Shown: positions 21,159 to 41,393 of the stretch, piece by piece
Layout: each line of letters begins with the position of its first letter
How positions within the stretch are numbered: the first letter of the stretch is position 1
Source: an uncultured Flavobacteriaceae bacterium
GTDB lineage: Bacteria; Bacteroidota; Bacteroidia; Flavobacteriales; Flavobacteriaceae
Assembly: GCA_947503005.1 (NCBI GenBank)
Contig: CANNCA010000001.1
Coordinates: 62,001-126,000 of the forward strand
DNA length: 64,000 nt
Reading direction: 5' to 3'
Position numbers and translations under genes: made by a program
The notes under the pieces: generated by a model
The model's database searches: none
What the model was told of the DNA's origin: nothing
Seen by the model: the letters and a program-made list of their open reading frames with translations, nothing else

Positions 21159-21224
21159 GTTTCAGGTAAAAGAATGTACAATTATACTAGGCAAACGACC
21201 AAATACCTTGTCAAAACCTCGTTT

Positions 21225-22592
21225 TTAGACTCCCCTAGAGAACAAAACCGTTGTTATTGTCTTTAATATAATCCTTAAATCTAAAGTAATCGACCTGTTC
21301 TTGATGTAATAGAAGTCATATTCAAGTTTCTTTATGGAATCTTCCAAATTCTCCCCGTACTTGTACTTTACCTGTGCCCAGCCTGTGATGCCTGGTCGAA
21401 TTAAATGGCGTACGTTGTAGAAAGGGGTCAGCTTATTCAGCTCATCGACAAAGACCCTGCGTTCGGGTCTTGGACCTATGAACTGCATGTCTCCTTTAAT
21501 CACTGAAATGATTTGTGGCAGTTCATCCACGCGAAACAAACGGAGAATCTTACCAAAAGGAGTAATCCGTGCGTCATTCTTGGTCGCCATCTTGGCCCCT
21601 TGGCTTTCTGCATTGACGACCATTGAGCGAAACTTATAAATCTTAAACTCCTCCGCATGTAATCCCACTCTACGCTGGGTATAAAATAGTGGCCCTCGAT
21701 TGAAGAATAGATTCAATAACCAAACAAAGGGGATGCTCAGTACAAAAACAATTCCGACGATAAGTGATAGAAAAAAATTAATCAAAAAACCAAAGATGCG
21801 CTGTAAATACCTGATTTTTTTATTGCGCAACTGTAATATTTCATAGAAACTATCATTATGTGATTTAATGGGTAGCGCCTCATAGGTGTTTTCGTAAAAA
21901 GTGGTGAATGAGATAACTTCCTTACCGTTTAGAATAGACTTGAGTACCATTTTCTCCAGACTCTTGGGCAATTCATTGTATGATTTGATATTAACGATTA
22001 CCGCGTCAATTTTGTCCGTTGCCGTCAGAAAGAATTTCTTGTTAATGGCGGAGTCCTTCTGCAAGGAATAGGTCAATTTCACCTTATAGAAGGTTTTCTT
22101 TTCGTCACCATCGATAACTTTTATATCGTCTTGTAGACTACCATAAGTATTCTCATCATAGAGGTACAAAACGTTCTTGGTATCGGGAATGATGTCAAAT
22201 ACATTACGAAACAATAAACGCCACCCTGCAATCTGAATAGGCGTTAGTAATAGGAAGTACAATAATTTGATTCGCCAAAAACTGACATCGTAAACAATAA
22301 CCGCAAATAGGAATACCAAGAATACAAAAATACCACTGATATAGAGCGATTGGGAAACGATGTACCTGCGTTTCGTGATTTTTTCCAAATTGTAGAACTC
22401 CAAAACATAGGCTAGAAGTAAATATGTAAGAATTCCGAAAGTAAAAACACCAACTTTTAAACGTAACGAAATAAACTCGGCATCGATGGCATAATTGACC
22501 AGAACATTTATGGCCGCCACAATAATAGCCACATCTACCACCAGTAGAATAAACTTGCGTTCAACAGAATTTAAGATGGACGGTCGGGCCAT
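21225..22592 (-). CDS. Undecaprenyl-phosphate sugar phosphotransferase (WcaJ/WbaP type)
   Basis: This 455-residue enzyme starts the repeat unit by moving a sugar-1-phosphate onto undecaprenyl phosphate at the inner membrane. About four N-terminal helices (residues 10-125) and a middle soluble domain precede a fifth membrane segment (about 270-300). The catalytic bacterial sugar transferase domain carries KIYKFRSM, VDELPQIISVIKGDM and IGPRPERRVF. All signature elements are intact. The first sugar cannot be told from sequence. Confidence 0.92.
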   Translation of the reverse strand: MARPSILNSVERKFILLVVDVAIIVAAINVLVNYAIDAEFISLRLKVGVFTFGILTYLLLAYVLEFYNLEKITKRRYIVSQSLYISGIFVFLVFLFAVIVYDVSFWRIKLLYFLLLTPIQIAGWRLLFRNVFDIIPDTKNVLYLYDENTYGSLQDDIKVIDGDEKKTFYKVKLTYSLQKDSAINKKFFLTATDKIDAVIVNIKSYNELPKSLEKMVLKSILNGKEVISFTTFYENTYEALPIKSHNDSFYEILQLRNKKIRYLQRIFGFLINFFLSLIVGIVFVLSIPFVWLLNLFFNRGPLFYTQRRVGLHAEEFKIYKFRSMVVNAESQGAKMATKNDARITPFGKILRLFRVDELPQIISVIKGDMQFIGPRPERRVFVDELNKLTPFYNVRHLIRPGITGWAQVKYKYGENLEDSIKKLEYDFYYIKNRSITLDLRIILKTITTVLFSRGV

Positions 22593-22621
22593 GGTCAGCT
22601 AGTAATTTGACTTTGCAAAAA

Positions 22622-22656
22622 AAATCCTCTCCTTAGCCCTCTCTCCCAAGGAGAAA
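22622..22656. repeat. Degenerate pyrimidine/purine dyad in the GT2-WcaJ gap
   Basis: CTCTCCTT and AAGGAGAA flank a C-rich centre. It is similar in type to elements at 19665-19695 and 41359-41382. It may be a remnant of a dispersed extragenic repeat or a weak hairpin. Confidence 0.3.
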
Positions 22657-22728
22657 GAACAAATTCTGGCAGCTTCAAAAACATTGCCTTGAGAATCGAT
22701 TCATTTAACATGAAAAATCATTGTAAAC

Positions 22729-23472
22729 TCAAAAGTAACTTTTCAATTTCAAAATAATGGCGGAAAGGAGATAAAATGAAGATTTGAACCATGAGAGCCC
22801 CTCGACTTCTCTGTAGATTTTCCATTCGTATTTGAGGAGATCCATTTTATTGGCTGATATCGAAGCATTACCGGTGCGATAACTGGCCAAACATTCATTC
22901 AAACCATACCCATCGGTTTTTTTTAGCAAGTTCAGCCAAAGCCCGTAATCTTGACGCTTACGAATAGATGGCATATACTGTTTTCCGAAAAAATCAACAC
23001 TATAGATTACGGTTAAACAGCCAATTGGGTTTTTGTATAAAGCACTCTTGTAAGTTACAATAGGATTACACTTCACATACTTTGAAAGTTTTTGACCCTT
23101 TTCATCCATCATGTCGTAATCTGTAAAACTAAAATGATAGTCATTCTTCTGCATAAAGAGCAATTGCTTCTCCAATTTTTGGGGATACCACTGATCATCA
23201 CTATCCAAAAAAGCAATATAATTTCCTTGAGCCAATTCAATAGCCTTGTTTCGAGCGATGCCGGCACCACTATTTTCTTCAAGACGGTGGTATTTGATTC
23301 TGTGGTCTTTTGATTGATACGATTTAATGATGCTTTCACTATCATCGGAAGAGCAATCGTCGACAAGAATGTGCTCCCAGTCCGTATATGTCTGAGCTTG
23401 GACAGATTTTATGTTCTCCGAAATATACCTTTTGGAGTTGTAGACTGGAGTGATAATAGAGATTAAGCTCAT
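22729..23472 (-). CDS. Glycosyltransferase family 2
   Basis: This 247-residue GT-A enzyme starts SLISIITPVYNSKRYI, has the acidic metal site DSDD in GNYIAFLDSDDQWYP (about residues 86-100) and a C-terminal hydrophobic end. It probably adds one sugar to the lipid-linked repeat unit in the cytoplasm. Donor and linkage are unknown. It is within the minus-strand cluster, 49 bp after the GT-C gene. Confidence 0.88.
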   Translation of the reverse strand: MSLISIITPVYNSKRYISENIKSVQAQTYTDWEHILVDDCSSDDSESIIKSYQSKDHRIKYHRLEENSGAGIARNKAIELAQGNYIAFLDSDDQWYPQKLEKQLLFMQKNDYHFSFTDYDMMDEKGQKLSKYVKCNPIVTYKSALYKNPIGCLTVIYSVDFFGKQYMPSIRKRQDYGLWLNLLKKTDGYGLNECLASYRTGNASISANKMDLLKYEWKIYREVEGLSWFKSSFYLLSAIILKLKSYF

Positions 23473-25576: not shown

Positions 25577-27676
25577 TTAGGAACTGTTTTTGGCCTTGAA
25601 AACGATACAATAGGTAAGAAATAATTGTAAAAACCCTTTGAGGTTTTCTTCAAAAACCGCATCTTCAATAAATTCGTCATAGTCTCCGATAAACCGATTC
25701 ATTTCTTCTTTTATCTCATTACTGGAAATGGTGCCTTTGATATCCAAAATTTGGTTGCTCACACCGTAGTCATGTACAATTTCCAAAGTCGGATGCATAT
25801 GTAATTTAACCAATAAATCACTAACGTCAATATTCGTTTCCAACTCTATACGGAGCGCTAATTTCAGTTCTTGTCCATTGCCAACATCGGCAATATCATC
25901 AATGGCGTAATACGCTATCTTAACATCGGCGAAGGGTGCCTGCGAACTAATGTACTTGGCACTATCTTCTTCCCTTAGTTTAAGCTGATTCAAGACTTTT
26001 TCCTTGGTATAGTCACGCTTCGCCACATCACGACTTATTTTCCAATGCAGGCGTAAGTTTTGCTCGGGTTCTACAAATATTTTCAAATCGAAAAGATTTC
26101 GCTTTGCGGAAATGTAAAAAGGATGCAATCCTTCAAATACGAGAATCTTATTGGGATATACCTTAGCAGGCGCGGTAAACTTACCTGTACCATGATCATA
26201 AAACCTTCGTAAAACCTTCTTGCCGTCCTTCAGGGTTTTTAATTGCCGTATATCTTCGTGTAAATGGTTTGCCTTTGGTGACAAATGCGTGACTTCTTCC
26301 CATTTATCGTGGCCCCGCTCCCATCTGTGCATATCATCACCTCTTATGATGGTCATGTTGTGCCCTCCAAAGAGATCTGTGAGTAATCCGGTCAATGTAG
26401 ATTTGCCCACTCCTGAATCTCCGCCAATACCCACTAAAAATGGTTTGTTTTTTATTTTTTTAACCAAGTTCTTTTTGATGCCCCATTTGTAGATCCAATA
26501 CACATTGAGAAGCAAGCAAGTTTGCAAAAAAGTCAAGGCCAAACTCGCTGCAACATCGGGCGATACCCACTGATTTTCTTCTAAAAAGCTATAAAAAGTG
26601 AAGTTACTTTCACTGAAAAGGAATACTGAAAAATAATCCGAATCTACCGTAAGAGCGAAATAAATAAAGAATGCCAACTGCAAAATCAGTATAGGTAGCA
26701 ATGAGAATTTATTTTCACGAATAGCGAAATAGACGAAAAACGGAAGGATCCAAAAATACCAACCGGGTTGTGGCGGAATAAAAATCAAGAGTACAGAAAA
26801 CGAAAAGCCAATGAATATCAGAAACAAGTCTTTGCTTATCCGCTTAAACCGTGTAGCCGTTGCCAATAAAATAAGATAGATTGCGGGAATGATATAGTAA
26901 TTTAATGACCCTATCATGGAAAAACTGGCATTCCAAATTTTCGGTTGTTCTCTATTGGCATATACCATTTTAAGAAATGAATCACTATCTAAATACGGCA
27001 GGTTCATTGCAAGAAAAACGAGTAACGTCATGAATGCCGGCACTGCCAGCTTTGCCAATTTATTTTCGTTGTTGTTTTTCCATACAAAAAGAATGTAGAA
27101 CGGAATCACCAATAAAAGATTGGTCTTGGCGGCAATGCCCAGGCCCAAAATCAATGCTGAAAGAATATACTTTTTCTTGAAAAGAAAATAGGAAGAGGCC
27201 AAAAGAAAAGCAATGGGAACAACGTCAAGCTGCCCGTGGATATAAGTGATATAAATCAAGACGGGCGACAACCAATAAAATCTTAACAACATGGCCGACT
27301 TGCCTTGGAGCAATCTACTTAAAACAAGTAAAATGCCAATGTCAGCTAAAAGCAGCGGTATTCTTATCAAAAATGGAGTCAAGTTTGCCGCAAAGCCTCC
27401 TAGAAACCCCAAAAAATAGAGCATGAACGGAGGGTAGGGAAATGCATCTGCAGCCCCCGCATTATAAAAGAACTCATAAGGATTATCAAAGCCCGATTTG
27501 AAAAAATAAGTCACAAAAGGTATAAAGGCCTCTTTCAAAAATTTACCCGCAAAAAGAAAGGACAGGATTACTTTTATGACAAGTCCAATCCAGAAGACAC
27601 GATTTCTTAATATCTCAAGTTTAAAGACTCCCTTTTTGTCTTTTAGTAAAAAGTAAGAACTATTATTTAAAGCCAT
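25577..27676 (-). CDS. Fusion: GT-C membrane transferase plus uridine-kinase-like domain
   Basis: This 699-residue protein has two parts. Residues ~25-400 hold ten or more membrane helices with FPYPPFMLYFLG and YIHGQLDVVPIAFLLAS, patterns of GT87/PIG-M-like GT-C transferases. Residues ~410-640 form a P-loop kinase of the uridine kinase/phosphoribulokinase family: GDSGVGKS at 419-426, RGDDMHRWERG, FEGLHPF, and a lid RDVAKRDYTKEKV. The kinase would face the cytoplasm. No break or frameshift is visible at the junction. It overlaps the GDPD-like gene by 10 bp and abuts the GT-C gene. The substrate is unknown; a polyol or sugar is as likely as uridine. Confidence 0.78.
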   Translation of the reverse strand: MALNNSSYFLLKDKKGVFKLEILRNRVFWIGLVIKVILSFLFAGKFLKEAFIPFVTYFFKSGFDNPYEFFYNAGAADAFPYPPFMLYFLGFLGGFAANLTPFLIRIPLLLADIGILLVLSRLLQGKSAMLLRFYWLSPVLIYITYIHGQLDVVPIAFLLASSYFLFKKKYILSALILGLGIAAKTNLLLVIPFYILFVWKNNNENKLAKLAVPAFMTLLVFLAMNLPYLDSDSFLKMVYANREQPKIWNASFSMIGSLNYYIIPAIYLILLATATRFKRISKDLFLIFIGFSFSVLLIFIPPQPGWYFWILPFFVYFAIRENKFSLLPILILQLAFFIYFALTVDSDYFSVFLFSESNFTFYSFLEENQWVSPDVAASLALTFLQTCLLLNVYWIYKWGIKKNLVKKIKNKPFLVGIGGDSGVGKSTLTGLLTDLFGGHNMTIIRGDDMHRWERGHDKWEEVTHLSPKANHLHEDIRQLKTLKDGKKVLRRFYDHGTGKFTAPAKVYPNKILVFEGLHPFYISAKRNLFDLKIFVEPEQNLRLHWKISRDVAKRDYTKEKVLNQLKLREEDSAKYISSQAPFADVKIAYYAIDDIADVGNGQELKLALRIELETNIDVSDLLVKLHMHPTLEIVHDYGVSNQILDIKGTISSNEIKEEMNRFIGDYDEFIEDAVFEENLKGFLQLFLTYCIVFKAKNSS

Positions 27677-28257
27677 CTCGAAACATTATAGTGTTTGGTG
27701 CATATGGCGTCGAATACAATCTCTTGCGCTGCTAAATAGGTTTTGTAGTTTTCGATATCTTCGTCACGGCCTTGTAATTCAGGTGAAACCAGACATAGCT
27801 TGTAGTCCATTTTCTTCAATTGCAAAAACAATTCTCGATCAATGGGCAACTTGGTAAAACAATCGACCCACACCCATTCTACCCGACCTTGCATGATTTT
27901 CAAGGTGTCTAAGCCTTCAAACTCTGAGTAACGCAATGCCACTTTACGCTCCCCACCTTTGACCAAAGTATGAATCATTGGGAAGGAGGAGTCTAAAAAG
28001 AAATAGTTGTTAATACCATACTTCTTTATCAGTTCCAATACTTTGAATTCAATGCGCTCACTTTTGATATTCAAAATCATTGTGCCGTGCCTATACTGTT
28101 TTAGATATGCTTCGAAGTCTTCGCCGGGGATAAAGGGGTCATGTGCAATATATACCGTGCCATCAAGAGCGTCTCTAAGGTCGATTTCCACACCATATTC
28201 CTTGGGTAGGCCTTCGAGCCCTGCAACCGTATTGATGCGATGTGCGATAAATTCCAT
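27667..28257 (-). CDS. GDPD-like (glycerophosphodiester phosphodiesterase fold) protein
   Basis: This 196-residue protein is shorter than full GDPDs (~250). It keeps the metal/catalytic pattern: His6-Arg7 (IAHR), Glu24 and Asp26 (VEIDLRD), His39-Asp40 (YIAHD) and Lys65 (NIKSE). No signal peptide is present, so it acts in the cytoplasm. Its position between a GT2 gene (1 bp) and the kinase fusion (10-bp overlap) points to a role with a phosphodiester- or phosphate-linked intermediate of the polysaccharide, not general lipid breakdown. That is an inference. Confidence 0.75.
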   Translation of the reverse strand: MEFIAHRINTVAGLEGLPKEYGVEIDLRDALDGTVYIAHDPFIPGEDFEAYLKQYRHGTMILNIKSERIEFKVLELIKKYGINNYFFLDSSFPMIHTLVKGGERKVALRYSEFEGLDTLKIMQGRVEWVWVDCFTKLPIDRELFLQLKKMDYKLCLVSPELQGRDEDIENYKTYLAAQEIVFDAICTKHYNVSRWL

Positions 28258-28258
28258 A

Positions 28259-28960
28259 TTATTTTAAGTTCTTCTTCAGTTTTGCGCTAAAGTCCAGCGT
28301 TCTTTTGATGAATTTCTTCTTTGCTGCAAAACCCGTATTCCAACTTGAGGTACCGTGAATGCGTTCCGGGAACAATACATCGAACCGAATCACCTTCAGT
28401 TTTTGCTTCTTTGCCATATAGAGCGCATACAGGTCTAAAGCAAAATCATGAGGGGGATTCTTCCAACTAGCAAAGAAGTCGCGATGGAAAATATTCGGTT
28501 GTGCATTGATGTCATGCAATTTCACCCCCATGTAAATGGTTTCGAAAAAACTCATTCCCGAAGTAAAAAACTGATCAAAAAATGGTCTGCCCTTGCGGTC
28601 ACCCTTGACATATATATTTTGTTCATCAGGTTCTTTTTCGATAATTTCAAGTGCCTTGATCACATCACTTGGATCTGTTTGCATATCTGCATGTGTCCAT
28701 CCGATAAACTTGCCTTTCGCATCTTCAAGACCGGATAAAATTCCAAAACCATAACCTTTGTTCTCAGGAACATCAACCAAGCGGGCAAAGGTATATTTGG
28801 GCACTAAATCTCCGAAAACGGCCTTGGAATCATCAGTCGAGCCATTATTTACCAATACCACCTCAACATCATCTCGATGGATTACCTTTTCAAAACTCGA
28901 AAGAATTAGTGGTATGTTCTTCGCTTCATTGTAACAAGGAACCACTATGGACAATTTCAT
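28259..28960 (-). CDS. Glycosyltransferase family 2 (dolichyl-phosphate-mannose-synthase-like)
   Basis: This 233-residue protein begins KLSIVVPCYNEAKNIPLIL and has the nucleotide-binding NNGSTDDS and the acidic HADMQTDP in place of the usual DxDxQ. The pattern is close to DPM1-type enzymes, which charge a polyprenyl phosphate with a single sugar for GT-C transferases. That fits the two GT-C proteins encoded downstream and supports a lipid-linked donor route (inference). Confidence 0.85.
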   Translation of the reverse strand: MKLSIVVPCYNEAKNIPLILSSFEKVIHRDDVEVVLVNNGSTDDSKAVFGDLVPKYTFARLVDVPENKGYGFGILSGLEDAKGKFIGWTHADMQTDPSDVIKALEIIEKEPDEQNIYVKGDRKGRPFFDQFFTSGMSFFETIYMGVKLHDINAQPNIFHRDFFASWKNPPHDFALDLYALYMAKKQKLKVIRFDVLFPERIHGTSSWNTGFAAKKKFIKRTLDFSAKLKKNLK

Positions 28961-29024
28961 TTGTTTATCATCTTGATTTATACCTTTAAAAACAATCTCT
29001 TCATATTACAACTTCTACTATTGA

Positions 29025-29738
29025 CTATCGGTGCAGCACGACTACAATACCACCCATACCGTAATCAAGAATTTTTCTGTATTTAAATTCCGTTTCGCTT
29101 AAAAACTCATTGAATGCCAAGGTGACGCCCTTTTTTGGGTCGCCATTGTAGCTGTAAAAATCATCTAAGATAATATGGGTGCCACTTTTGACATTGTTCT
29201 TGATAAATTCAAAAGCACATTTTGAAGAGGAATACGTATCCGAATCAATGAATGCTATTCGTATATTTTCAATGCCGTATTTTGATGGGCCTTCCTTTAA
29301 GCTTTCCTCGAAATAACCCTTAACCAGTTGACATCCTGCTCCCCAATTTTTTAAAGTTCTTTCCGCTCTTTTCTTAACTTTTTCATAACTCGTAGCAAAA
29401 TTTTGATCCACGTAAAAAGGGTGTTTATCGTCCTCATCCAATTCGCCAAAACCTTCAAAAGAATCAAAACCTAAGAATTTTGTCTCCTTTTGAAAGGGAT
29501 TGAATTTTTCCATTTTCTTGAAACACTTGATGGAATGACAAAATGAAGACCCCGTATAAACGCCAAACTCCAAATAATCTCCTTTTTGATGTTCCAAAGA
29601 GTTTAAATACACCGTTTTCTTTATAGCGACATATTTTTCAATGTTGTGAATCACGGCAGGGTTGACGGAACTTATAAAACTTGATGCCCAGTTTTGTAAA
29701 AATTCCATTTTCCCGAGTATTCCGAATTTTGATGCCAT
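29025..29738 (-). CDS. TylF/MycF-type methyltransferase
   Basis: This 237-residue SAM-dependent O-methyltransferase-like protein has the SAM-binding YLEFGVYTGSS, FLGFDSFEGFGEL, the metal-site-like IAFIDSDTYSS and ILDDFYSY. TylF-family enzymes methylate sugar hydroxyls in natural products; in capsule clusters they modify sugars or substituents. It is 82 bp downstream of the double nucleotidyltransferase gene. Substrate unknown. Confidence 0.82.
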   Translation of the reverse strand: MASKFGILGKMEFLQNWASSFISSVNPAVIHNIEKYVAIKKTVYLNSLEHQKGDYLEFGVYTGSSFCHSIKCFKKMEKFNPFQKETKFLGFDSFEGFGELDEDDKHPFYVDQNFATSYEKVKKRAERTLKNWGAGCQLVKGYFEESLKEGPSKYGIENIRIAFIDSDTYSSSKCAFEFIKNNVKSGTHIILDDFYSYNGDPKKGVTLAFNEFLSETEFKYRKILDYGMGGIVVVLHR

Positions 29739-29820
29739 GTTTGTATCGCCTTTTAGTCTAGTTAGTATTTGTTCTTATGCTGTCTTGGTTAGAATCCTTT
29801 TATAGCTTTCTCTTAAGTTT

Positions 29821-31470
29821 TTACCGCCATTCTTGTTGAAACGAGCCATACTTTTTATCAAGTTCATCTAATTCATCACGATTTACAGTGATGTCTTTTT
29901 CTAAAAGGTATGGATGCCATTCCGCTTTATGAAAAAAGCTTTGCCAATAGGTAAAGGTTCGATGGTCATTAGGTGTGCCCCACCCTATATAATGATCGAT
30001 TTCGAACACTTTTACATTCAGGTTCATTTCGACCAATTCATTCAGGCAACTATCTACATAGAATTCTCCGTTTACCCTTATATTTTTCTTGTACAGTCTA
30101 CTCAAAGCCTCTAAAAAATAGCTGGTCTTCCTAAAATAGAAAGTGCCCACTATAGCATGGTCTTTTCGGGGAGTATCACTAATGGCTTTTTTTACGCTTA
30201 CCCCTGTCACCGTATTTTTGTCATCTGTTTTGATCCATCCGTACATTTCAGGATTTCGTTCACTGCTCGGGTGGTTTCTAAAAGACCAAGCGATGGCATC
30301 TACATTGGTGTCATTTAGCAAGGCTTCGTACTTTTCTTTGCTGTACAACATACCATTATCACAAGCGGCTATCAATAAAGGGCTGTCGGTGTTTTCACCT
30401 TCTAGACCAACCTCACAAGTACAGGCTTGGCCTTCGGTGGTTTTGTTCAACGACACTATTTTACTTTCAGGATACTCGCTTTTTATGGATTTTTCAAGAG
30501 GATACTCCGAAAGGTGCTCCTCCAAACAAACAAAAATATTTCTGGGTGCTTTTGGTAAATAATTCGCTGCTTGAACGATCATTGGTTTCCCCGAGACCGA
30601 AATCAAAGGTTTAGGGTCAACATAGCCCTCTTTGGAAAAACGACTGCCAAGTCCTGCCAGTGGGATCAGGTTGATGCCATTGGACTTATGGATATCGGTA
30701 TTTGGCACCTCTTTACAGACTGCCTTGAAATATGCTGAAAATCCATTGTATTCTTCAACATCTTGTGGCGTACCCCATTGCAGCATGTGTTGTACTTCAT
30801 AGATGGAAACTTTGAGTCCGTCATTGACCAAAAGATTATAAATCAAGCTGACATAAAACTCCCCGTTGAGATTAATGTCATGGTCCATTAATTCTTTGAA
30901 ATACTTCTTTACATAAGCTCCTTTTTTGAAATAATAGGTGCCTATGGAAGCATACTCTTGCATTCGATTATTTGTAAAAGGTTCTTTCTCTTTGATTTCG
31001 AGCATCCACTGCTTTTCATCTCTCATAAAAGCATAATTGGTCGTACCCAGCATGTGCGGATGAAAACCTTTATAGGCAGGTACGGCACCATCGGCATCTC
31101 GCGAGCGCGTATGGGCCAAAAAATCGGCATAATCCCAATAGCACGAAAAATCACAATAGTTTATAATGACCTCCTCATCGTTTTCAATAAGATTTTCCAC
31201 ATAATGCACTGCATAAACAGGCCCTTTCTTGTGAGGTGGAATCTCGACGATTTTACCTTTGGGGGCAATTTTTTGCAACATAGCCTTCATATTAGTCTCT
31301 TTGAGATGCTTGCTGTTGCATATAAAAATAAAATCTTCCTCCGTCGGAAACATTTTTACCACATGTTCGATGATAGGTATACCGTCTATTTCTATCAGCG
31401 GTTTCGGAGTTTGGTAACCGGCCTGTATAAAACGGTTGCCCATACCTGACATTGGTATTACTATCTTCAT
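29821..31470 (-). CDS. Tandem double nucleotidyltransferase
   Basis: This 549-residue protein consists of two homologous NTP-transferase domains. Domain 1 (about 1-250): GMGNRF at 9-14, PKP at 22-24, catalytic-type Asp107, GEFYV at 203-207, WGTP at 232-235. Domain 2 (about 266-515): GLGSRF at 273-278, PKP at 286-288, Asp371, GEFYV at 468-472, WGTP at 497-500. Both keep the NTP-binding glycine loop and Lys-Pro motif, so both may be active. The family activates sugar or polyol phosphates as NDP derivatives. It lies 3 bp downstream of the next membrane-protein gene. Substrates unknown. Confidence 0.82.
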   Translation of the reverse strand: MKIVIPMSGMGNRFIQAGYQTPKPLIEIDGIPIIEHVVKMFPTEEDFIFICNSKHLKETNMKAMLQKIAPKGKIVEIPPHKKGPVYAVHYVENLIENDEEVIINYCDFSCYWDYADFLAHTRSRDADGAVPAYKGFHPHMLGTTNYAFMRDEKQWMLEIKEKEPFTNNRMQEYASIGTYYFKKGAYVKKYFKELMDHDINLNGEFYVSLIYNLLVNDGLKVSIYEVQHMLQWGTPQDVEEYNGFSAYFKAVCKEVPNTDIHKSNGINLIPLAGLGSRFSKEGYVDPKPLISVSGKPMIVQAANYLPKAPRNIFVCLEEHLSEYPLEKSIKSEYPESKIVSLNKTTEGQACTCEVGLEGENTDSPLLIAACDNGMLYSKEKYEALLNDTNVDAIAWSFRNHPSSERNPEMYGWIKTDDKNTVTGVSVKKAISDTPRKDHAIVGTFYFRKTSYFLEALSRLYKKNIRVNGEFYVDSCLNELVEMNLNVKVFEIDHYIGWGTPNDHRTFTYWQSFFHKAEWHPYLLEKDITVNRDELDELDKKYGSFQQEWR

Positions 31471-31473
31471 ATC

Positions 31474-33048
31474 TTATTCGCTAAGGCTTTTTATACTGTA
31501 CAAACTGTGTCTGTTATTCTTCCAAACAGGAGTGTTATTGGCAAATTCGGAATCAAACCCATTTTCAATCAAAATATAATCCAATTGGTATTTTTTTGAT
31601 ATTTCGATGAAGTCCTTTGGTTGTAACTCCCTGTAAAAGTCTATTCCGTTGGTATCATTTTGAAATGACCCATATATTGATTTGCGCCGTTCAGCATATT
31701 CAACGCTAAACTTTTCGGTAAATGGAAACTCATCACTTATAAATACCCCTCTTCGGCCAATAATTCGCATATCGGTATTCAAAGTTCGTGAATAGGTGCT
31801 AAAAATAGCTTCTTTTGGGGTGCGCTGCACAAAATCATAATAGTCCTTTCGATTGTTGTAATGGACTTCCCTTGGGTTATCCATAAATACAATTCCTACA
31901 AAAATTAGATTTATTATTAGAATAGCGAAATTTTTCACAGGAAGACTTGGAAAAACCAGCGCCTGCTCCTTTTTAATATGGTCTGCCAATAAAAGGGCCC
32001 ACAAAACCACCAACATCCAGTAACCGAAAGTCGTAAATCTAGAAACCCCCAAATAGGCAATTAGCTTAACCGGAATCACATCAATGAAAACGTACTGAAC
32101 TGCAATGGCACCGGAATAAGAAACCCAAGTGCAGAGTGCTAAAAGCCACAATATTTTTCTTTTACGCCGTAAACCGTAAAGGAACGGTATAATAAATAGC
32201 AGGTTCATCAGCACAAAAAATATCTCCCAATCCCCCTTAAGATTTCTAAAGTCAGGTACGCTATAATGCCAGGGGTGCCTTTCTTTCACATAAATATCGA
32301 TAAATTCCGATGTCGGTAGGGACTGTTCTGAAGCGAATACCAACTTTACAAGCACTACCGCCAAAAGCGTGCTTACCAGTATGGGTAGGAATGCCTTAAC
32401 CTCTTTTTTGAACTCCGGTATTAAAAAAAGGGCATAAAATAGCATACCGAACAATCCCATGGCCGGATGTACCACGGCCGCCAGAAAGAAAAAGGGCAGA
32501 TACCTTATTTTATTCCGTTTGGCCTCCTTTAGAAGTATGCCCACAAGACACAACGTAATAGAAACATTGTGGGCACTTAAGCCCAGATAATACGCCAACC
32601 ATGATGCGACCGAAAAATACGGCCTGTATTCTTTTAGAAAGACCATCAGCACCAGACAAATCAATACGAATGGTGCTAACCTGTTTAGGGCCTTTACACT
32701 GACATATCTACGCAATAGCACCACCAGTACCTTAAAATATAAGATGGGCATCAAGATTACCCATAGTAGTTTCAAAATATAGAGTATCGTGTACCAATGC
32801 AATGTCGTAATCCGGGAAAGTGCTACGACAAAATACCCATAAACCCATCTCGGGTTCTTTGCTACGGTGGTATTGGTAAAGAAATCATTGGTTAAAAAAT
32901 TCGCATCGAAAACCCTTTCAAAAAAGGGCATCATATCTTGCTCGCCCCATGTATACGCCGTAGGCTCCATCATAAACCCTAAGAACCCAAAAAGGGCCGC
33001 AATGGCCAGATAGGAATAGTTTCTTGAAGGATCCAGCTTGGTAGTCAT
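31474..33048 (-). CDS. Multi-pass membrane protein, GT-C/DUF6798-like
   Basis: This 524-residue protein has about ten to twelve membrane helices and a soluble C-terminal domain of ~100 residues. The N-terminal loop contains TYTWGEQDMMPFFERVF and NDFFTN, which resembles DUF6798-type proteins. It may be another periplasmic transferase or a polymer-modifying enzyme. Assignment beyond membrane protein of a polysaccharide locus is uncertain. Confidence 0.6.
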   Translation of the reverse strand: MTTKLDPSRNYSYLAIAALFGFLGFMMEPTAYTWGEQDMMPFFERVFDANFLTNDFFTNTTVAKNPRWVYGYFVVALSRITTLHWYTILYILKLLWVILMPILYFKVLVVLLRRYVSVKALNRLAPFVLICLVLMVFLKEYRPYFSVASWLAYYLGLSAHNVSITLCLVGILLKEAKRNKIRYLPFFFLAAVVHPAMGLFGMLFYALFLIPEFKKEVKAFLPILVSTLLAVVLVKLVFASEQSLPTSEFIDIYVKERHPWHYSVPDFRNLKGDWEIFFVLMNLLFIIPFLYGLRRKRKILWLLALCTWVSYSGAIAVQYVFIDVIPVKLIAYLGVSRFTTFGYWMLVVLWALLLADHIKKEQALVFPSLPVKNFAILIINLIFVGIVFMDNPREVHYNNRKDYYDFVQRTPKEAIFSTYSRTLNTDMRIIGRRGVFISDEFPFTEKFSVEYAERRKSIYGSFQNDTNGIDFYRELQPKDFIEISKKYQLDYILIENGFDSEFANNTPVWKNNRHSLYSIKSLSE

Positions 33049-33100
33049 TGTTTCGTCAAGTTCTTTTGTTACGCAATCAACAAAAGATTTGGGCTTGATA

Positions 33101-34177
33101 TTATAGTTTTTGCCTGTATTTTTCGGCTTCCCAGTTACCTAAGTAGCTGATTTCACTATCTTCCAAAAATTGTAAATCAGATTCAAGGGTATTTGCAATC
33201 AGAAGATTATTTTTAAATACATCTTCTATCATTTTGGCTTTCTTCAAATCTGCCGCCATGATGTATATCAACCCATTATATCGTATAACCTTGGGAGCAT
33301 CAAAATAGTGTTCTTGATACTTGCGAAAAACTTCGGACTTTAATTCGTCTGCATTGCATATAGTATACCCGCAGAATACATACCCATCAGGAGAAAAGGG
33401 TTTTTTCAACTGATCCGCATTTATCTGATTCAAAAGTTTAGTAATCGTTGCATCTTCGGATAGGTAGGCGATATCATCTCGATTGAAAGTTTTGTTATAA
33501 CAATTTGAAATATTGGTCGTATCGCGATATCGCGAAAAATCCACCCCCGCTTTTTTCTCGGCAGCCACAACCACTTTTTCATTAAACGCCTCAATATCAT
33601 CATAGTTATTAGAGCTAATAATCAACCCATGGTTCTGCAGAAAAATTACATTTGGGAGACGACCAAAGGTACTTTCGTAGTGCTCCATTTGCTTTTTCAA
33701 TTCTAGGGCAAGCTCAATGCCTGGGGTTTCGTATTTCACGCAGAGGGCTTTATCATCCAGCTCCTCCATTTTTTGCAACCAGTTTTTATGCGAAGTGAAC
33801 ATATTCACTGAAATGGAATGCACATGCAGCGTATACTTGTACAGCAAGGCATGTAAATACGTTTCTATCGACGGCCGTGGGCCATCGGATATCTTTGCCA
33901 ATTGTAGTTTTTTTGATGCGGTAGCATCCTTGTCTTTTTTATCTGATATGTTCAGCACCTCATCATCATCTAGAATCGCCGTTACTTTAGCTGTTTCTAC
34001 AATTGTATGTCCCGTATTTTGGGTTAATTCGGAGAGGAGATAACCCGATGCTTTGATATACATCTGGTTTCCAAATTTTACGGAAGTATTGCCTCCACCA
34101 GCTTGAACCAGGTCAAAACGCTGTCCGGCATATTTTGACATTTTTATCAAAGCATCAAGGGCTTCTTTATTTTCCAT
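33101..34177 (-). CDS. Class II aldolase/adducin family protein with C-terminal extension
   Basis: The first ~230 residues form a class II aldolase fold: GGGNTS at 27-32 (phosphate loop), Glu105 in SIETYLHALLY, zinc ligands His118 and His120 (HVHS) and His183 (QNHGL). Family members cleave or form aldol bonds of phosphorylated sugars, epimerise pentulose phosphates or decarboxylate tetronate phosphates. The remaining ~125 residues are an extension not found in short FucA-type enzymes. The start overlaps the HAD gene by 11 bp, indicating coupled translation and a shared pathway. The exact reaction is unknown. Confidence 0.82.
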   Translation of the reverse strand: MENKEALDALIKMSKYAGQRFDLVQAGGGNTSVKFGNQMYIKASGYLLSELTQNTGHTIVETAKVTAILDDDEVLNISDKKDKDATASKKLQLAKISDGPRPSIETYLHALLYKYTLHVHSISVNMFTSHKNWLQKMEELDDKALCVKYETPGIELALELKKQMEHYESTFGRLPNVIFLQNHGLIISSNNYDDIEAFNEKVVVAAEKKAGVDFSRYRDTTNISNCYNKTFNRDDIAYLSEDATITKLLNQINADQLKKPFSPDGYVFCGYTICNADELKSEVFRKYQEHYFDAPKVIRYNGLIYIMAADLKKAKMIEDVFKNNLLIANTLESDLQFLEDSEISYLGNWEAEKYRQKL

Positions 34178-34856
34178 CGCTTAGGATATTTTCGAATCGG
34201 GAAACCTCCCGTATATTTTCTGTGAGCAACTGCGCTTCCTTTTTATGATTGATCCAAATACTCGGTATGCCCATGGCATTTGCTCCGACAATATCCTTGC
34301 ACCAGCTATCGCCTATCATGAGTGCCTCGGAAGCCTCACAATCGAGTTTTTGAAGTGCTTTGGTAAACATCGCAGCATCCGGTTTTTCAATCCCTACCTC
34401 TTCACTGGTCACTAAAAAATCTACATATTTAGCAAGGCCTAGTTCTTCGATTTTTCGAAATTGTATATGGGCCGTTAAATCGGTGAGGATGCATATTTTG
34501 CCCTCTTTCGTTCTATGCTTTTCCAAATAGTCAATAACCCCTTCAAAAAGTGTCATGTTTTTCAAAAACGTACCCCAATACAGTTCGTAGAACTCCAAAG
34601 CATAGTGCATGCTATTTATAGCATTGTATTCCAACATTTTCTGTAAATACAAAAGCCTATTGTGCGATGCGGCCCTTTTTGGTAAATCTAGGTGGGTGTT
34701 TTTTCTGGCCTTGTCAAAACTCTGCTGCGCACGTTCTGCGGAGATATTGAACGTAACAGAAAAGCGTTCCAACATTGTTGACAAGGCTATTTTATGCGGG
34801 GTGTCATAGCCGTACAGCGTATTATCAAGGTCAAGGATAAGGTTTTTTGCGGTCAT
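34167..34856 (-). CDS. HAD-family hydrolase (probable sugar-phosphate phosphatase)
   Basis: This 229-residue protein has motif I DLDNT with Asp9 and Asp11, a helical cap (about 20-95), motif II ILTDLT, a Lys in VGIEKPD and motif IV IGDSWCKDIVGA. All catalytic residues of a HAD phosphatase are present. It precedes the class II aldolase and overlaps it by 11 bp. It probably removes a phosphate from an intermediate of the same route. A promoter box lies just upstream, so it may head a sub-operon. Confidence 0.85.
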   Translation of the reverse strand: MTAKNLILDLDNTLYGYDTPHKIALSTMLERFSVTFNISAERAQQSFDKARKNTHLDLPKRAASHNRLLYLQKMLEYNAINSMHYALEFYELYWGTFLKNMTLFEGVIDYLEKHRTKEGKICILTDLTAHIQFRKIEELGLAKYVDFLVTSEEVGIEKPDAAMFTKALQKLDCEASEALMIGDSWCKDIVGANAMGIPSIWINHKKEAQLLTENIREVSRFENILSDGK

Positions 34857-34952: not shown

Positions 34953-36065
34953 TCAGTTTAGTAACTCATGATACAAATTAATTAAGTTTTCCTTTTCAGA
35001 ATGCCAGCTAAACTCCTCCTTTACAGCCTTTTTGCCATTTGAACCCATTTGATTGGCCAAATCTGGGTTTAAAATCAATTCTTCTATGCTATCGGCCAAC
35101 TCTTTTGAGGAATAGGGTTCTACACAATACCCACAATGGTATCGTTCGACCACATTTTGGTATAAGGGAAAGTTTGAAGTGATAACAGGTAAACCAATGG
35201 CCATATATTCAAATATTTTTGTGGAATATGATCCGACATAATTCTTGATCGGTTTTAAGACAGAAAGACCGACCACACATTTTTTTGAAATCTCAAAGCC
35301 TTCTTTCGAGTCCATTCTACCATAAAACTTGATACTTTCCTTAATCTCTCCTAAAGGCAGTGCAACTATTTTCTCCTTCGAAATAGGGCCGATATAGTGC
35401 ATAAAGAAATTGGTCTCCCTAGATTTTAAAATCTTTAGTGCCTCAAGGGTGACATCAAGGCCTCGCTCATTTGAAATGCCGCCTATATAGAAGATTTCAT
35501 TTCCTACTCGATTATTGTTAATATAGGGTTCGAAATGGCTCAAATCAGGCATATTCAAAACCGTAGTTAACGATTTCCCTTTATTGGTATATACATGCTG
35601 ATACGAATGTTCAGCGATGATTAAATGAAAATATTTTAAATAATATTGCTCCACTTTTTTGTAAACGATTGAAACCAAACCCCTTAGAGCTTTTGGAATG
35701 TAGGTTTTGTCTAATATCTGAACTGCTATATTTTCGTGTATATCAAATACAATAGGAATCTGAAACTTTGACCTTAATTGCTTTCCGACAAACATAAGTT
35801 CGGGATCGTGAAAATGCACTAAGCTTGGCCCTAATTCTTCTGCTATCTTTTTAATCTTTGAGCCGCTTTTAAAGAAGTTCTTTATTCTTGAACTTTCTAA
35901 ACCAATATCTAAAACTTGTACCCCTTCAACAAATTCGTCTCCTTTGCCATCTGCCACCAAAAGATAAACTTCGAAGCCATTTTTAGATAAACTTACACAC
36001 TCCCGATAAAATATTCGAGTATCTCTTCTCGGGTGTACTGTCGATATGTGAAGTATTTTATGAAT
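34953..36065 (-). CDS. Glycosyltransferase family 4 with apparent ATT start codon
   Basis: This is a GT-B enzyme of 370 residues if read from the ATT codon at 36063-36065. The first residues then read HKILHISTVHPRRDTRIFY, the normal N-terminal strand and loop of GT4 enzymes. No ATG, GTG or TTG occurs between the upstream in-frame stop and this segment. The first conventional start is a TTG at 35960, which would delete 35 residues including the first Rossmann strand. The C-terminal half has the donor-site EYMAIGLPVITSNFP. The ATT overlaps the stop of the polymerase gene by 8 bp, a usual coupling geometry. It is either a rare start codon or an ATG-to-ATT change or error. Confidence 0.8.
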   Translation of the reverse strand: MHKILHISTVHPRRDTRIFYRECVSLSKNGFEVYLLVADGKGDEFVEGVQVLDIGLESSRIKNFFKSGSKIKKIAEELGPSLVHFHDPELMFVGKQLRSKFQIPIVFDIHENIAVQILDKTYIPKALRGLVSIVYKKVEQYYLKYFHLIIAEHSYQHVYTNKGKSLTTVLNMPDLSHFEPYINNNRVGNEIFYIGGISNERGLDVTLEALKILKSRETNFFMHYIGPISKEKIVALPLGEIKESIKFYGRMDSKEGFEISKKCVVGLSVLKPIKNYVGSYSTKIFEYMAIGLPVITSNFPLYQNVVERYHCGYCVEPYSSKELADSIEELILNPDLANQMGSNGKKAVKEEFSWHSEKENLINLYHELLN

Positions 36066-37320
36066 AATCTGTGCTGTTTTTTCGTCTTAGTACAAGAAGG
36101 GTCAAAAGTATCAAGATAATTCCACCATGAGTCACCAAAACGGTAGAAAATGTAGTGGTAAATATGTTATAAATAAAGAAAAAGAAAATCCCATAGAACC
36201 GGTTATCCACATTGCTATTTTTCACAACACTAAAAAAGGTGCTTAATAAGAAAATATTTAGAATCACCCCTATGAAGCCAGCGTTAGTAAATCCATCTGA
36301 AATTATTCCGTTATTAGCTGCCATATCCGGTCTGTCGAAGTAAATTTCACCTATTAATCGCGCTGGTGTTTCGTCATACGGATATTCGATAAATCCCTTT
36401 AAAAATCCGCTGGACCAATACAAATGATTCCCATCAAAAAAATCATAATAGGCATAATCAAGAAGACTAGGAATGAACATTAACCTTCTGAATATAATTA
36501 CAGCAACTATATTATTATCTGCATCAAAGAAAGGTATCGAAATTATAGCTATGAGCGCTAACCCTATTAATCCGCCAACTATATAATTCATCAGTTTTTT
36601 TGATGGTAAAAAGTAAAATAATACTACCAACAAGCTCCCAAGAAGTACCGACTTAACCGCTCCCATTAGATAGAGCATTAACAACACCAAAAAATTGAAG
36701 AACGCAAGTAATCTAAGACGGAATTTTAGTGCAAAAACAAAAATCACAGGTATGATTACCCGCGTAAACCATGAATGTGAATAGCTCGAATATGTATCAA
36801 ACAATGCTCTAAACTTAAATCTGGTTGAATAGATATCAATCAAGAACAAGTTCTTGATATTTATGTGATGGATGTATCTTAAAAATGGAAGGACTCCTAT
36901 TATCGTAATTGCAACTAATAAAAACAGTGATTGTTTTTTACTTAGAATGGGCCAACTGATATCATATCTGATTTTCAATGCGAAAAATAGTGTGAAAAAC
37001 AGCGCAATATGAGCTAGGTAAATAATCGGGCTGGCATTTGTACTTGAAAAAAAGATGGAACTAGGTATAAAATATACCGCTAAAATAATACCAATAGTAT
37101 TTTTGCTGAAAATATCAAAATTCGCTCTCTTGTATAATCGAATTGTGATAAAAACGAAGATACTTACTACAAGATATTTAAGTAAATTGAAGTTATATTC
37201 GATTTCGATTTTTTGATTTAATTTACGAAAGAACCAAGTAAACCGTACCACTAAAAAAAATAGTATGGAAATAAGTAAGTAATATGTCTCGAAGAGGTAT
37301 TTGCCTAGTTTAATCTTCAT
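36058..37320 (-). CDS. Oligosaccharide repeat-unit polymerase (Wzy-like)
   Basis: This 420-residue protein has about eleven to twelve membrane helices and a large periplasmic loop between about 260 and 345 containing DETPARLIGEIYF, the layout of Wzy polymerases. It lies between the flippase (11-bp overlap) and the GT4 gene. It would join lipid-linked repeat units in the periplasm. Sequence conservation in this class is low, so the call rests on topology and context. Confidence 0.75.
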   Translation of the reverse strand: MKIKLGKYLFETYYLLISILFFLVVRFTWFFRKLNQKIEIEYNFNLLKYLVVSIFVFITIRLYKRANFDIFSKNTIGIILAVYFIPSSIFFSSTNASPIIYLAHIALFFTLFFALKIRYDISWPILSKKQSLFLLVAITIIGVLPFLRYIHHINIKNLFLIDIYSTRFKFRALFDTYSSYSHSWFTRVIIPVIFVFALKFRLRLLAFFNFLVLLMLYLMGAVKSVLLGSLLVVLFYFLPSKKLMNYIVGGLIGLALIAIISIPFFDADNNIVAVIIFRRLMFIPSLLDYAYYDFFDGNHLYWSSGFLKGFIEYPYDETPARLIGEIYFDRPDMAANNGIISDGFTNAGFIGVILNIFLLSTFFSVVKNSNVDNRFYGIFFFFIYNIFTTTFSTVLVTHGGIILILLTLLVLRRKNSTDYS

Positions 37321-38569
37321 CTTTCAATACTCTTACTTCATTAATAATTATTATAAGATATATTGTATACAAAGCAGCAGCGCCATAAGCATACCACTTT
37401 ACAAAGGAGAGAAAATCCAAATTAAAAAAATAGACAAGACAGAGCATGTATAACAACATTATGACAAATCTACCGTACTGCCAATAAGCATTAAGTTTGA
37501 TTTTTTTCAGAGAGATAAGAACGATACTAATAGGACCCACAATTATTTGAGATAAAAAAACAACGGCCAGTAACTTTGCAATAATTCCAGTATTCTCCCA
37601 ATCGAATCCAAAAACAAATGGGAAGAGATACACACTACCGAAATATAAAACCAAAAAGGCAGGGATGCCAATTGCGGCTAACATCCCTAATGTTTGCTTA
37701 AAAGTTTTCTTTGCTAGTTTTCCTTTCCCGTTGTTTATATACTCGCTCATTTTTTGAAAGAAAATAGTGCCCACACTTTGTGTAATAAAAGAAATAGGCA
37801 ATAAAACGACCATATTTGCCAATCCAAAATATCCAAGTTGTTCTTTCGAATAATATATTCCAATAAAAAGTATGAGCATTTGAAGGCTCATTACGTTTAC
37901 AAAACTCGAAGGCATGTAATGAAGCGGAAATTCTTTATAGTCTAATAAAAGATCTTTGTATGTTTTCCATTTATTTCTTTGGAATTTTAACTTGGAAAAA
38001 GCAAATAACAATGCCAAAGCCACACATACTCCTACAAACTTGCCTAAGGCTAGGCCCAATTCATTCTGTCCTTTTAAGTAATAAAACGAGCACGCAAAAG
38101 CAACATAACTACCATTTTCTATGATTTTAGAATATGCTTTTAGCTTAAATTTTTTAATTCTGACAAACCAGAAATTTATGATATTAAGTGCTGACAAGAA
38201 CAAAACATAAAAAGGCACAAAATTAATTACGTTCTGGATTTTAAAACTATTTCCTAGTCTCTCACTAAAAAAAATCACCAATAAAATAGTCACAATCGAA
38301 AATAATAACGCAATTCCAATACCTAGTACCATCAGTTGGTTTGCACGATTATCATCTTTCTCCGTAACCACTGCGTTTTCCAACTTAAAAGTGGAAAAGA
38401 CCAAAAGAATACTACTAAGCGCCATTAGACCAGTGATTTCAGCCATGGCGTTCTGGTCATATATTCTCGACAATAATGGGCTAAAGACCACTGGAATCAA
38501 CTGGGCCGCTATAACTAAGCCGGCTTGACTGAATATATCTTTAAAGTATCTAGATGTGAAGAAACTCAA
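37310..38569 (-). CDS. Polysaccharide flippase (Wzx/MOP family)
   Basis: This 419-residue protein has about twelve membrane helices. The N-terminus FSQAGLVIAAQLIPVVFSPLL matches the typical first helix of Wzx-type flippases, followed by LSRIYDQNAMAEIT. It moves undecaprenyl-linked repeat units to the periplasmic face. It overlaps the polymerase start by 11 bp and follows the ligase gene by 13 bp. Confidence 0.88.
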   Translation of the reverse strand: MSFFTSRYFKDIFSQAGLVIAAQLIPVVFSPLLSRIYDQNAMAEITGLMALSSILLVFSTFKLENAVVTEKDDNRANQLMVLGIGIALLFSIVTILLVIFFSERLGNSFKIQNVINFVPFYVLFLSALNIINFWFVRIKKFKLKAYSKIIENGSYVAFACSFYYLKGQNELGLALGKFVGVCVALALLFAFSKLKFQRNKWKTYKDLLLDYKEFPLHYMPSSFVNVMSLQMLILFIGIYYSKEQLGYFGLANMVVLLPISFITQSVGTIFFQKMSEYINNGKGKLAKKTFKQTLGMLAAIGIPAFLVLYFGSVYLFPFVFGFDWENTGIIAKLLAVVFLSQIIVGPISIVLISLKKIKLNAYWQYGRFVIMLLYMLCLVYFFNLDFLSFVKWYAYGAAALYTIYLIIIINEVRVLKDED

Positions 38570-38582
38570 TAAATTTATGGTT

Positions 38583-39923: not shown

Positions 39924-39978
39924 TGAAATTATCGTTATTGAAGCTAAGCCTGGAAATTTTTTTACGAATTAGACCATA

Positions 39979-41382: not shown

Positions 41383-41393
41383 CCTTTTTAAAT

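What the first reader, a model, noticed from the sequence alone, without database searches (positions are those of the whole stretch)
25577..34856. Cassette for an undescribed nucleotide-activated substituent of the surface polysaccharide
In one minus-strand block lie a HAD phosphatase and class II aldolase (11-bp overlap), a membrane protein, a double nucleotidyltransferase, a TylF-type methyltransferase, a DPM1-like GT2, a GDPD-like protein and a GT-C/kinase fusion. These families in combination can make a carbon skeleton by aldol chemistry, phosphorylate it, activate it as an NDP derivative, methylate it and transfer it in the periplasm. No standard sugar pathway that I know uses this set. 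The motifs are seen; the pathway is inferred.
Basis: partly seen in the sequence, partly recalled or inferred. Interest (0 to 1): 0.72.

Follow-up and report, generated by a model that had tools for sequence, protein, structure and literature searches.

The report
Sugar-making cassette shared with phages
A block of genes in this bacterium looks like a dedicated production line for an unknown activated sugar-like building block plus the machinery to attach it to the cell surface, and the same production line turns up in distant bacteria, on plasmids and in bacterial viruses.

Summary
In detail: nine adjacent minus-strand genes (23522-34856) with the named families. So do three plasmids, from E. 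coli, Hirschia and Azospirillum. Phage contigs hold the biosynthetic half in other wirings: kinase-aldolase fusions (24 of 27 loci), a HAD-kinase fusion (L130), and in L131 six biosynthetic genes followed by a DNA-glycosyltransferase-like gene. Core: PRK-like kinase, HAD, class II aldolase, two nucleotidyltransferase domains, GDPD-like protein. Of 61 distinct kinase stretches, 58 keep the ribulose-5-phosphate-site residues; three are fragments. Bacteria add GT2, GT-C and usually GtrA, as gtr systems do. TylF is optional. Best reading: a dedicated nucleotide-activated donor, probably pentose- or pentulose-derived, loaded on a polyprenyl carrier and transferred in the periplasm. Product, step order and GDPD role are unknown. 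Ten searches of a partial library found no paper describing this set.

The parts
34167..34856 (-). A: HAD phosphatase, 229 aa; best NCBIfam model is haloarchaeal RuBP 5-phosphatase NF053830 (185.6 bits, below its 330 cut-off)
33101..34177 (-). B: class II (FucA/RhaD-type) aldolase, 358 aa; E105, H118, H120, H183 invariant in 17 relatives
31474..33048 (-). C: membrane protein, 524 aa, 8 TM-like segments; weak EpsG hit below cut-off; found by BLAST in 8 of the 10 Flavobacteriaceae-type loci (not L016, L017) and in none of the other 8
29821..31470 (-). D: tandem nucleotidyltransferase (NTP-a + NTP-b), 549 aa; domain 1 has Ser208 where domain 2 has Asp473
   Evidence: two separate genes in phage L060, L067, L083, L131
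29025..29738 (-). E: TylF-type O-methyltransferase, 237 aa, in the slot that holds GtrA in most other loci
28259..28960 (-). F: GT2 glycosyltransferase, taken as polyprenyl-phosphate sugar synthase (DPM1/GtrB type) from gene context
   Evidence: directly next to GtrA or TylF in the window and in 13 of the 18 loci
27667..28257 (-). G: GDPD-fold protein, 196 aa, with H6, R7, E24, D26, H39, K65 invariant in 15 relatives
25577..27676 (-). H: GT-C (GT87) membrane domain fused to a phosphoribulokinase-like kinase (residues about 409-660), 699 aa
23522..25576 (-). I: second membrane protein, GT-C-like by eye, 684 aa, 11 TM-like segments, next to H in 9 of the 10 Flavobacteriaceae-type loci (L029 is cut)
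20016..23472 (-). context: nucleotide-sugar decarboxylase-like (20016-21002, named by eye), WcaJ-like priming enzyme (21225-22592, named by eye) and a GT2 nearest to TuaG (22729-23472)
34953..43287 (-). context: GT4-like, polymerase-like and flippase-like genes and a dTDP-rhamnose gene set (39979-43287), all named by eye from translations

Best explanation
A gtr-type periplasmic glycan-modification cassette that brings its own donor pathway. Six activities (PRK-like kinase, HAD phosphatase, class II aldolase, two nucleotidyltransferase domains, GDPD-like protein) make a nucleotide-activated, probably pentose/pentulose-derived building block. Proposed logic, as for GDP-heptose: sugar monophosphate -> 1,5-type bisphosphate (kinase) -> isomeric monophosphate (HAD) -> NDP derivative (nucleotidyltransferase), with the aldolase making or remodelling the carbon chain and the GDPD-like enzyme acting on a phosphodiester intermediate. 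The GT2 loads it on polyprenyl phosphate, GtrA (absent here; TylF sits in its slot) flips it, and GT-C-type proteins C, H and I transfer it to the polysaccharide. Shown: gene set, co-occurrence, fusions, conserved catalytic residues. Inferred: every reaction, their order, and the acceptor.
For: Co-occurrence: of 18 aldolase-bait loci, HAD, NTP2 and kinase/GT-C in 18 (L021 in broken frames, L027 NTP2 cut), GT2 in 17, GDPD in 16, the misses L024 and L027 being contig ends. NTP2 as bait in plasmids: 26 records; the 3 above 40% identity carry the full set, the 22 others listed are below 35% and one is not listed. Fusions: KIN-ALD in 24 of 27 KIN-ALD-bait loci and 24 of 63 NTP-bait loci (7 contigs shared by name); HAD-KIN in L130; KIN-GT-C in the bacteria; NTP-a/NTP-b fused or split. 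Kinase: 58 of 61 distinct stretches keep P-loop K, first D, H55, R59, Y98, H100, K151, R154 (MhPRK numbers); the 3 departures are fragments. GtrA by Pfam in L009 and L015. Phages pair the same enzymes with a GT61 or TAGT-like glycosyltransferase, so the product behaves like a glycosyl donor.
Against: The window genome has no GtrA, so flipping is unexplained here. A ketose 1-phosphate, the expected product of a PRK-like kinase plus a 5-phosphatase, is not phosphorylated at its anomeric carbon, which sits badly with a glycosyl donor. The Glu of the PRK motif EGLH is Ser or Ala in 12 of 23 bacterial and something else in 3 of 37 phage stretches, though Glu in the window. Cyanophage versions show no kinase matching our profile (L041, L048, L102, L103), although S-SM2 and Bellamy have other annotated kinases nearby. 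HAD and kinase score below the NCBIfam cut-offs of the enzymes they resemble. I know of no precedent for a GDPD in such a route. 22 of 63 phage NTP-bait loci show no aldolase. Within Flavobacteriaceae the distance correlation of GT2 with HAD, aldolase and NTP2 is only 0.41-0.50.
Confidence: 0.68

Rival explanations
1. Phospho-ketose or phospho-polyol route: the nucleotidyltransferases make a CDP-ketose (like CDP-6-fructose in Campylobacter HS:5) and the substituent is linked through a phosphodiester, which would explain the GDPD-like protein.
For: Precedent for a cytidylyltransferase acting on fructose 6-phosphate (PMC10918830); conserved GDPD catalytic set; a PRK-like kinase plus phosphatase would give a non-anomeric ketose phosphate.
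Against: No reductase in the cassette; the transfer genes are GT2, GT61, GT-C and TAGT-like, none of the polymerase type known for CDP-polyols (from recall).
Confidence: 0.2
2. Pentose bisphosphate salvage: kinase, HAD and aldolase split ribulose 5-phosphate through RuBP and ribulose 1-phosphate to DHAP and glycolaldehyde, as the HAD and aldolase do in haloarchaea, and the nucleotidyltransferases serve something else.
For: Same HAD and aldolase types in PMC9700705; Ru5P-site residues kept in 58 of 61 kinase stretches.
Against: No clear reason for such salvage genes to sit with nucleotidyltransferases: of the 26 KIN-ALD-bait loci with an aldolase, 25 also have NTP and GDPD.
Confidence: 0.1
3. 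Separate roles: the genes are neighbours only because polysaccharide loci collect sugar genes.
For: The cassette lies in a large polysaccharide locus (by eye); 22 of 63 phage NTP-bait loci show no aldolase, some of them cut by contig ends.
Against: Conserved sets across phyla, a phage operon with no other polysaccharide gene recognised beside it (L131), and four kinds of gene fusion.
Confidence: 0.04

Closest known systems
gtr serotype-conversion systems (GtrA flippase, GtrB Und-P-sugar synthase, GT-C Gtr)
   Same: GtrA-type gene (in most relatives), small soluble GT2 and GT-C-type proteins in one cassette
   Different: gtr systems draw UDP-glucose from the host (recalled); this cassette carries its own donor pathway, and the window variant has no GtrA
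Three-component extracytoplasmic pentofuranose systems (PMC11127046; abstract and five passages seen)
   Same: Lipid-linked donor, flippase and GT-C transferase adding a side-chain sugar outside the cytoplasm
   Different: They use PRPP, a polyprenyl-phosphoribose synthase, a MATE flippase and GT136; none of the ten proteins scanned gave a prenyltransferase or MATE hit (GT136 was not searched as such)
Non-carboxylating pentose bisphosphate pathway of haloarchaea (PMC9700705; passages seen)
   Same: HAD RuBP phosphatase and FucA-type ribulose-1-phosphate aldolase work in sequence
   Different: Catabolic, starts from guanosine; its abstract lists no PRK-like kinase, nucleotidyltransferase or glycosyltransferase
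CDP-6-D-glucitol route of Campylobacter HS:5 (PMC10918830; abstract and passages seen)
   Same: Nucleotidyltransferase acting on a ketose phosphate for a capsule
   Different: Two enzymes, the second a reductase; no aldolase or phosphatase in that route
Arabinosylated-cytosine phages (RB69, PMC6024577; NP, PMC13390438; passages seen)
   Same: [quoted passage not shown] full pathway not characterised
   Different: Isomerase rather than aldolase; the word aldolase occurs 0 times in the NP paper, and no GDPD-like protein appears in the passages seen

Membership tests
gtr-type periplasmic modification system | GtrA (PF04138) flippase | tested here: not met
   Absent from the window genome (0 matches; the search rings in 7 of 14 control genomes); a GtrA-type gene in 11 of the 18 aldolase-bait loci by BLAST, confirmed by Pfam in the two scanned, L009 and L015
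gtr-type periplasmic modification system | GtrB-like GT2 making Und-P-sugar | tested here: inconclusive
   GT2 family confirmed; NCBIfam hits include PgfS and an ArnC-type transferase, far below their cut-offs; activity unknown
gtr-type periplasmic modification system | GT-C acceptor-specific transferase | tested here: met
   GT87 28.5 bits over cut-off 25 in H; C and I only by TM-like segments
Phosphoribulokinase | Ru5P and ATP site residues (MhPRK H55, R59, Y98, H100, K151, R154) | tested here: met
   20 of 20 chosen kinases and 58 of 61 distinct stretches, the other three being fragments, one with R for H55 at its cut end; list from PMC5241800 (passages). MhPRK R62, said not to be conserved in all PRKs, is lost in all that cover it
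Phosphoribulokinase | Glu of the EGLH motif (present in the three PRKs aligned) | tested here: inconclusive
   Kept in the window and in 11 of 23 bacterial and 34 of 37 phage stretches; Ser or Ala in 12 of 23 bacterial
Phosphoribulokinase | Family model score (PRK07429 subfamily, 236 bits) | tested here: not met
   209.8 bits
Phosphoribulokinase | Cassette kinases form a clade apart from, or inside, true PRKs | tested here: inconclusive
   Four true PRKs group together (95/94) but among the cassette kinases, with weak support at key forks and one long-branched outgroup
RuBP 5-phosphatase (NF053830) | Equivalog cut-off 330 bits | tested here: not met
   185.6 bits, the best of 48 models hit
Class II aldolase (FucA type) | Catalytic Glu and three Zn-binding His | tested here: met
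   E105 in 26 of 26 pathway aldolases aligned (Asp in the host's separate aldolase), H118, H120, H183 in 27 of 27. Roles of the residues recalled from FucA. Fold search does not decide: best are 3m4r (uncharacterised) and FucA 2opi, with AraD epimerases, decarboxylases and others close behind
Glycerophosphodiester phosphodiesterase | Fold | tested here: met
   Model pLDDT 90.9; ten of the first eleven Foldseek hits are GDPD entries, the very first is a multidomain glucanase entry
Glycerophosphodiester phosphodiesterase | Pfam GDPD (PF03009) | tested here: not met
   1 of 15 members at E 0.19
Three-component pentofuranose system | Polyprenyl phosphoribose synthase and GT136 | tested here: inconclusive
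   No prenyltransferase hit in the ten proteins scanned; GT136 has no model that I searched

The most novel reading that the evidence does not exclude
A six-activity nucleotide-sugar pathway not yet described, with an unknown product, is shared as a portable module by bacterial surface-glycan cassettes, an E. coli plasmid, cyanophages and T4-like phages, and in the last group supplies a donor for DNA hypermodification through a TAGT-like glycosyltransferase encoded next door.
Probability: 0.45. Interest if true: 0.85.

Novelty: new variant of a known kind. Interest (0 to 1): 0.74.

Why it matters
It points to a nucleotide-activated building block that standard sugar pathways do not account for, made by a module found in several bacterial phyla, on plasmids and in phages. 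It gives testable candidates for every step, would explain unassigned LPS-type genes in cyanophage S-SM2 and its kin, and may link surface glycan diversity to phage DNA modification chemistry. The GDPD-like family, usually found beside these nucleotidyltransferases (52 of 63 NTP-bait phage loci), would gain a function.

Tried and rejected
Considered and rejected: chance clustering (same set across phyla); kinase as uridine salvage (the genome has a separate 204-aa PRK-family protein on contig 7); aldolase as rhamnose catabolism (a separate 701-aa protein with an aldolase domain exists on contig 5, with Asp in place of E105); aldolase as AraD-type 4-epimerase (Glu, not Asp, at the key position; residue roles recalled; the fold search does not separate the two). 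Looked for and not found: the KIN-ALD fusion and the E. coli plasmid aldolase in the INPHARED phage records by tblastn (no match), so the fused form rests on metagenome contigs only; relatives of L130 and L131 with single-sequence queries (searches found only themselves); more Bacteroidota carriers (3 of 395, own included). Papers: ten searches listed none that I could recognise as describing the set; two returned nothing. PMC12826051, PMC10072801, PMC3037559 and PMC11404850 were opened for passages only. Xylulofuranose as product was a recalled idea that no result supports or excludes. Nucleotide specificity could not be read from sequence.

Weak points kept in view: the kinase tree does not separate cassette kinases from true PRKs; the aldolase tree has long branches and weak forks; L130's TAGT match is below the Pfam cut-off (22.4 v 27.5 bits), L131's is above (41.2). 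The aldolase scan used patterns specific to this family, so 18 of 18 speaks of this aldolase family, not of all class II aldolases. Distance correlations were not corrected for species relatedness. Phage counts include near copies of contigs and depend on profiles made here.

Rows dropped: GDPD alignment A2 leaves out L021, L024, L027, L029; aldolase A3 leaves out L027, L029; NTP2 A4 leaves out L021, L027, L029; the 20 kinases were a choice, so one search repeated the count on 76 stretches (61 distinct) from the cassette loci, the plasmids and the viral loci; the script skipped L094; one search used 17 taxa.
Full report
OBSERVATION. The region holds nine tightly packed minus-strand genes, A to I, from 34856 down to 23522. 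The GDPD-like protein has no Pfam match, and of 15 relatives scanned one hits PF03009 at E 0.19. Its AlphaFold model (pLDDT 90.9) matches solved GDPDs with TMq 0.61-0.71, and H6, R7, E24, D26, H39 and K65 are invariant in 15 of 15. That these are the GDPD catalytic residues is recalled. Gene I belongs to the block too.

CO-OCCURRENCE IN BACTERIA. The aldolase was found in 2 of 148 related genomes, the window's own included, and NTP2 in 3 of 395 sampled Bacteroidota genomes, own included, so the cassette is rare and patchy. A scan of 84,980 species genomes with the aldolase alignment gave 18 loci. Reading their neighbours: HAD 18 of 18; NTP2 18 of 18 (L021 in three frames, L027 cut); kinase/GT-C 18 of 18 (L021 as two frames); GT2 17 of 18; GDPD 16 of 18 (L021 partial). 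The missing cases, L024 and L027, are contig ends. GtrA sits in 11 of 18, TylF in its place in 5 of 18, neither in L026 and in the cut L027. Taxa: Flavobacteriaceae, Cohnella, Gastranaerophilales MAGs and one MAG labelled proteobacterium. An independent bait, NTP2 against 72,556 plasmids, gave 26 records: the three above 40% identity (E. coli p5-S1-CAM-01-A, Hirschia baltica pHbal01, Azospirillum brasilense p5) all carry the whole set, in Hirschia on both strands. The 22 other listed records are below 35% and one is not listed; the two that I opened, L034 and L035, show no aldolase or kinase in the stretch fetched. The E. coli version is in 2 of 5,426 complete genomes, on plasmids both times.

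PHAGES. NTP2 against IMG/VR gave 63 loci. Scanned with profiles made here: 41 of 63 have the aldolase, 52 of 63 a GDPD-like gene, 33 of 63 a HAD-type gene, 24 of 63 a single protein with PRK-like kinase and aldolase (in L060 Pfam PRK 1e-34 and Aldolase_II 6e-21). Of the 22 without aldolase, some end at the NTP gene (L039, L043, L047, L056), others do not. Seven contigs occur in both sets by name. In L060, L067 and L083 the two nucleotidyltransferase domains are separate genes, followed by a GT61 gene (Pfam checked in L060 and L041). The isolated Synechococcus phages S-SM2 and Bellamy carry NTP2, GT61, aldolase, small HAD and GDPD-like genes in a row; no kinase there matches our profile, though other kinases are annotated nearby. 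The 2010 genome paper (passages) speaks of LPS gene clusters in S-SM2, apparently this region, and says it is not known whether they are functional. Isolated phage records showed no KIN-ALD fusion. L130 has a HAD-kinase fusion (Pfam HAD_2 4e-15, PRK 5e-24), and L131 has GDPD, aldolase, NTP-a, NTP-b, kinase and HAD in a row. In both the next gene resembles a DNA glycosyltransferase (TAGT: L131 41.2 bits over cut-off 27.5, L130 22.4, below; phrog_842). Two examples are few, and PF20691 was not found in the five other records searched. The L130 record also has a second, short thymidylate-synthase relative, which by eye could be a hydroxymethylase-type enzyme or the related 5-hydroxy-dCMP synthase; the L131 record shows none, but may be a fragment. 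L052 and L055 carry the bacterial set. Phage-type DnaB-like helicases (phrog_19) beside the fusion in L062 and L114 fit a viral origin.

WHAT THE ENZYMES LOOK LIKE. The kinase aligns along its length with phosphoribulokinases. Kono et al. (PMC5241800, passages) name H55, R59, Y98, H100, K151 and R154 as Ru5P or ATP ligands. A chosen set of 20 cassette and phage kinases keeps them in 20 of 20; of all 61 distinct stretches 58 do, and the three departures are fragments, one with R for H55 at its cut end. R62, said not to be conserved in all PRKs, is lost in all that cover it. Against full PRK identity, the Glu of EGLH is Ser or Ala in 12 of 23 bacterial kinases, though not in the window. The HAD's best NCBIfam model is RuBP 5-phosphatase, below cut-off. 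In haloarchaea that phosphatase acts with a FucA-type ribulose-1-phosphate aldolase (PMC9700705, passages). The aldolase here has the FucA-type Glu and three His. Its best solved relatives are 3m4r, uncharacterised, and FucA, with AraD epimerases and other class II members close behind. NTP domain 2 has the full motif set; domain 1 has Ser208 instead of the last Asp (motif roles recalled).

HOW IT LIKELY WORKS. Fusions place the kinase next to both HAD and aldolase. The simplest scheme is the heptose one (recalled; the kinase and guanosyltransferase are listed in PMC10918830): phosphorylate a sugar phosphate to a bisphosphate, remove the other phosphate, nucleotidylate. The aldolase supplies or rearranges the carbon chain. 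The product is then handed to whichever transferase the carrier has: GT2 with GtrA and GT-C in bacteria, GT61 in cyanophages and some fusion phages, TAGT-like in L130 and L131. The GDPD-like enzyme usually lies beside the nucleotidyltransferase, also in shorter sets without kinase and aldolase (L011, L012, L034), so it probably acts close to that step; what it cleaves or forms is unknown. The main difficulty is that a PRK-like kinase should yield a ketose 1-phosphate, which is not anomeric; either the substrate is an aldose, or the donor is a phospho-ketose (rival 1), or the order differs.

KNOWN OR NEW. The transfer half works like gtr systems and like the three-component pentofuranose systems (PMC11127046, abstract and passages), but the window fails the GtrA feature, and the donor half matches no route that I know. 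Ten literature searches showed no description; the library lacks most subscription journals. Distances between the cassette proteins correlate at 0.70-0.97 over 17 taxa, uncorrected for species relatedness. Within Flavobacteriaceae GT2 correlates at 0.41-0.50 with HAD, aldolase and NTP2 but 0.85 with the kinase, and GtrA from -0.01 to 0.69 on 10 pairs, which suggests that the A-B-D and E-to-H halves have at times been exchanged.

CHANGES MADE ON CHECKING. Counts for plasmids, gene C, gene F neighbours and GDPD neighbours were corrected, and the kinase count was widened.

Noticed in passing
L031 (NZ_CP145712.1, 6022-14984): The complete cassette sits on a 33-kb plasmid of E. coli (replicon typed IncR) about 1.6 kb from an IS26 transposase gene; it is in 2 of 5,426 E. 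coli genomes.
   Followed up: partly
L011, L012, L034: GDPD-like, HAD and single nucleotidyltransferase genes occur in polysaccharide loci without kinase and aldolase in the stretch read (adjacent in L011 and L012), so this trio may be a more general module.
   Followed up: partly
window 29025-29738; L119 8209-8937; L083 4400-5041: TylF-type methyltransferases recur beside the pathway in Flavobacteriaceae, between NTP and GDPD in phage locus L119, and about 1.5 kb upstream of the fusion in L083.
   Followed up: partly
L102 10306-10617 (phage S-SM2): A gene annotated as phosphoheptose isomerase may be a small polynucleotide-kinase-type HAD phosphatase: its L041 homologue hits HAD_PNKP below cut-off (21.7 v 27.6 bits). 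Its best PHROG bears the isomerase name (9e-30), the second is polynucleotide kinase (1e-9).
   Followed up: partly
L021 7356-14412 (Cohnella ginsengisoli): Several cassette genes are broken into two or three frames, either decay or assembly error.
   Followed up: no
L022 4257-6140 and L023 3189-6082: Gastranaerophilales loci carry a further nucleotidyltransferase-like and a small HAD-like gene upstream of the cassette, plus in L023 a protein that looks SIS-like, all by eye.
   Followed up: no
window 39979-43287: A dTDP-rhamnose gene set (by eye) lies in the same polysaccharide locus.
   Followed up: no
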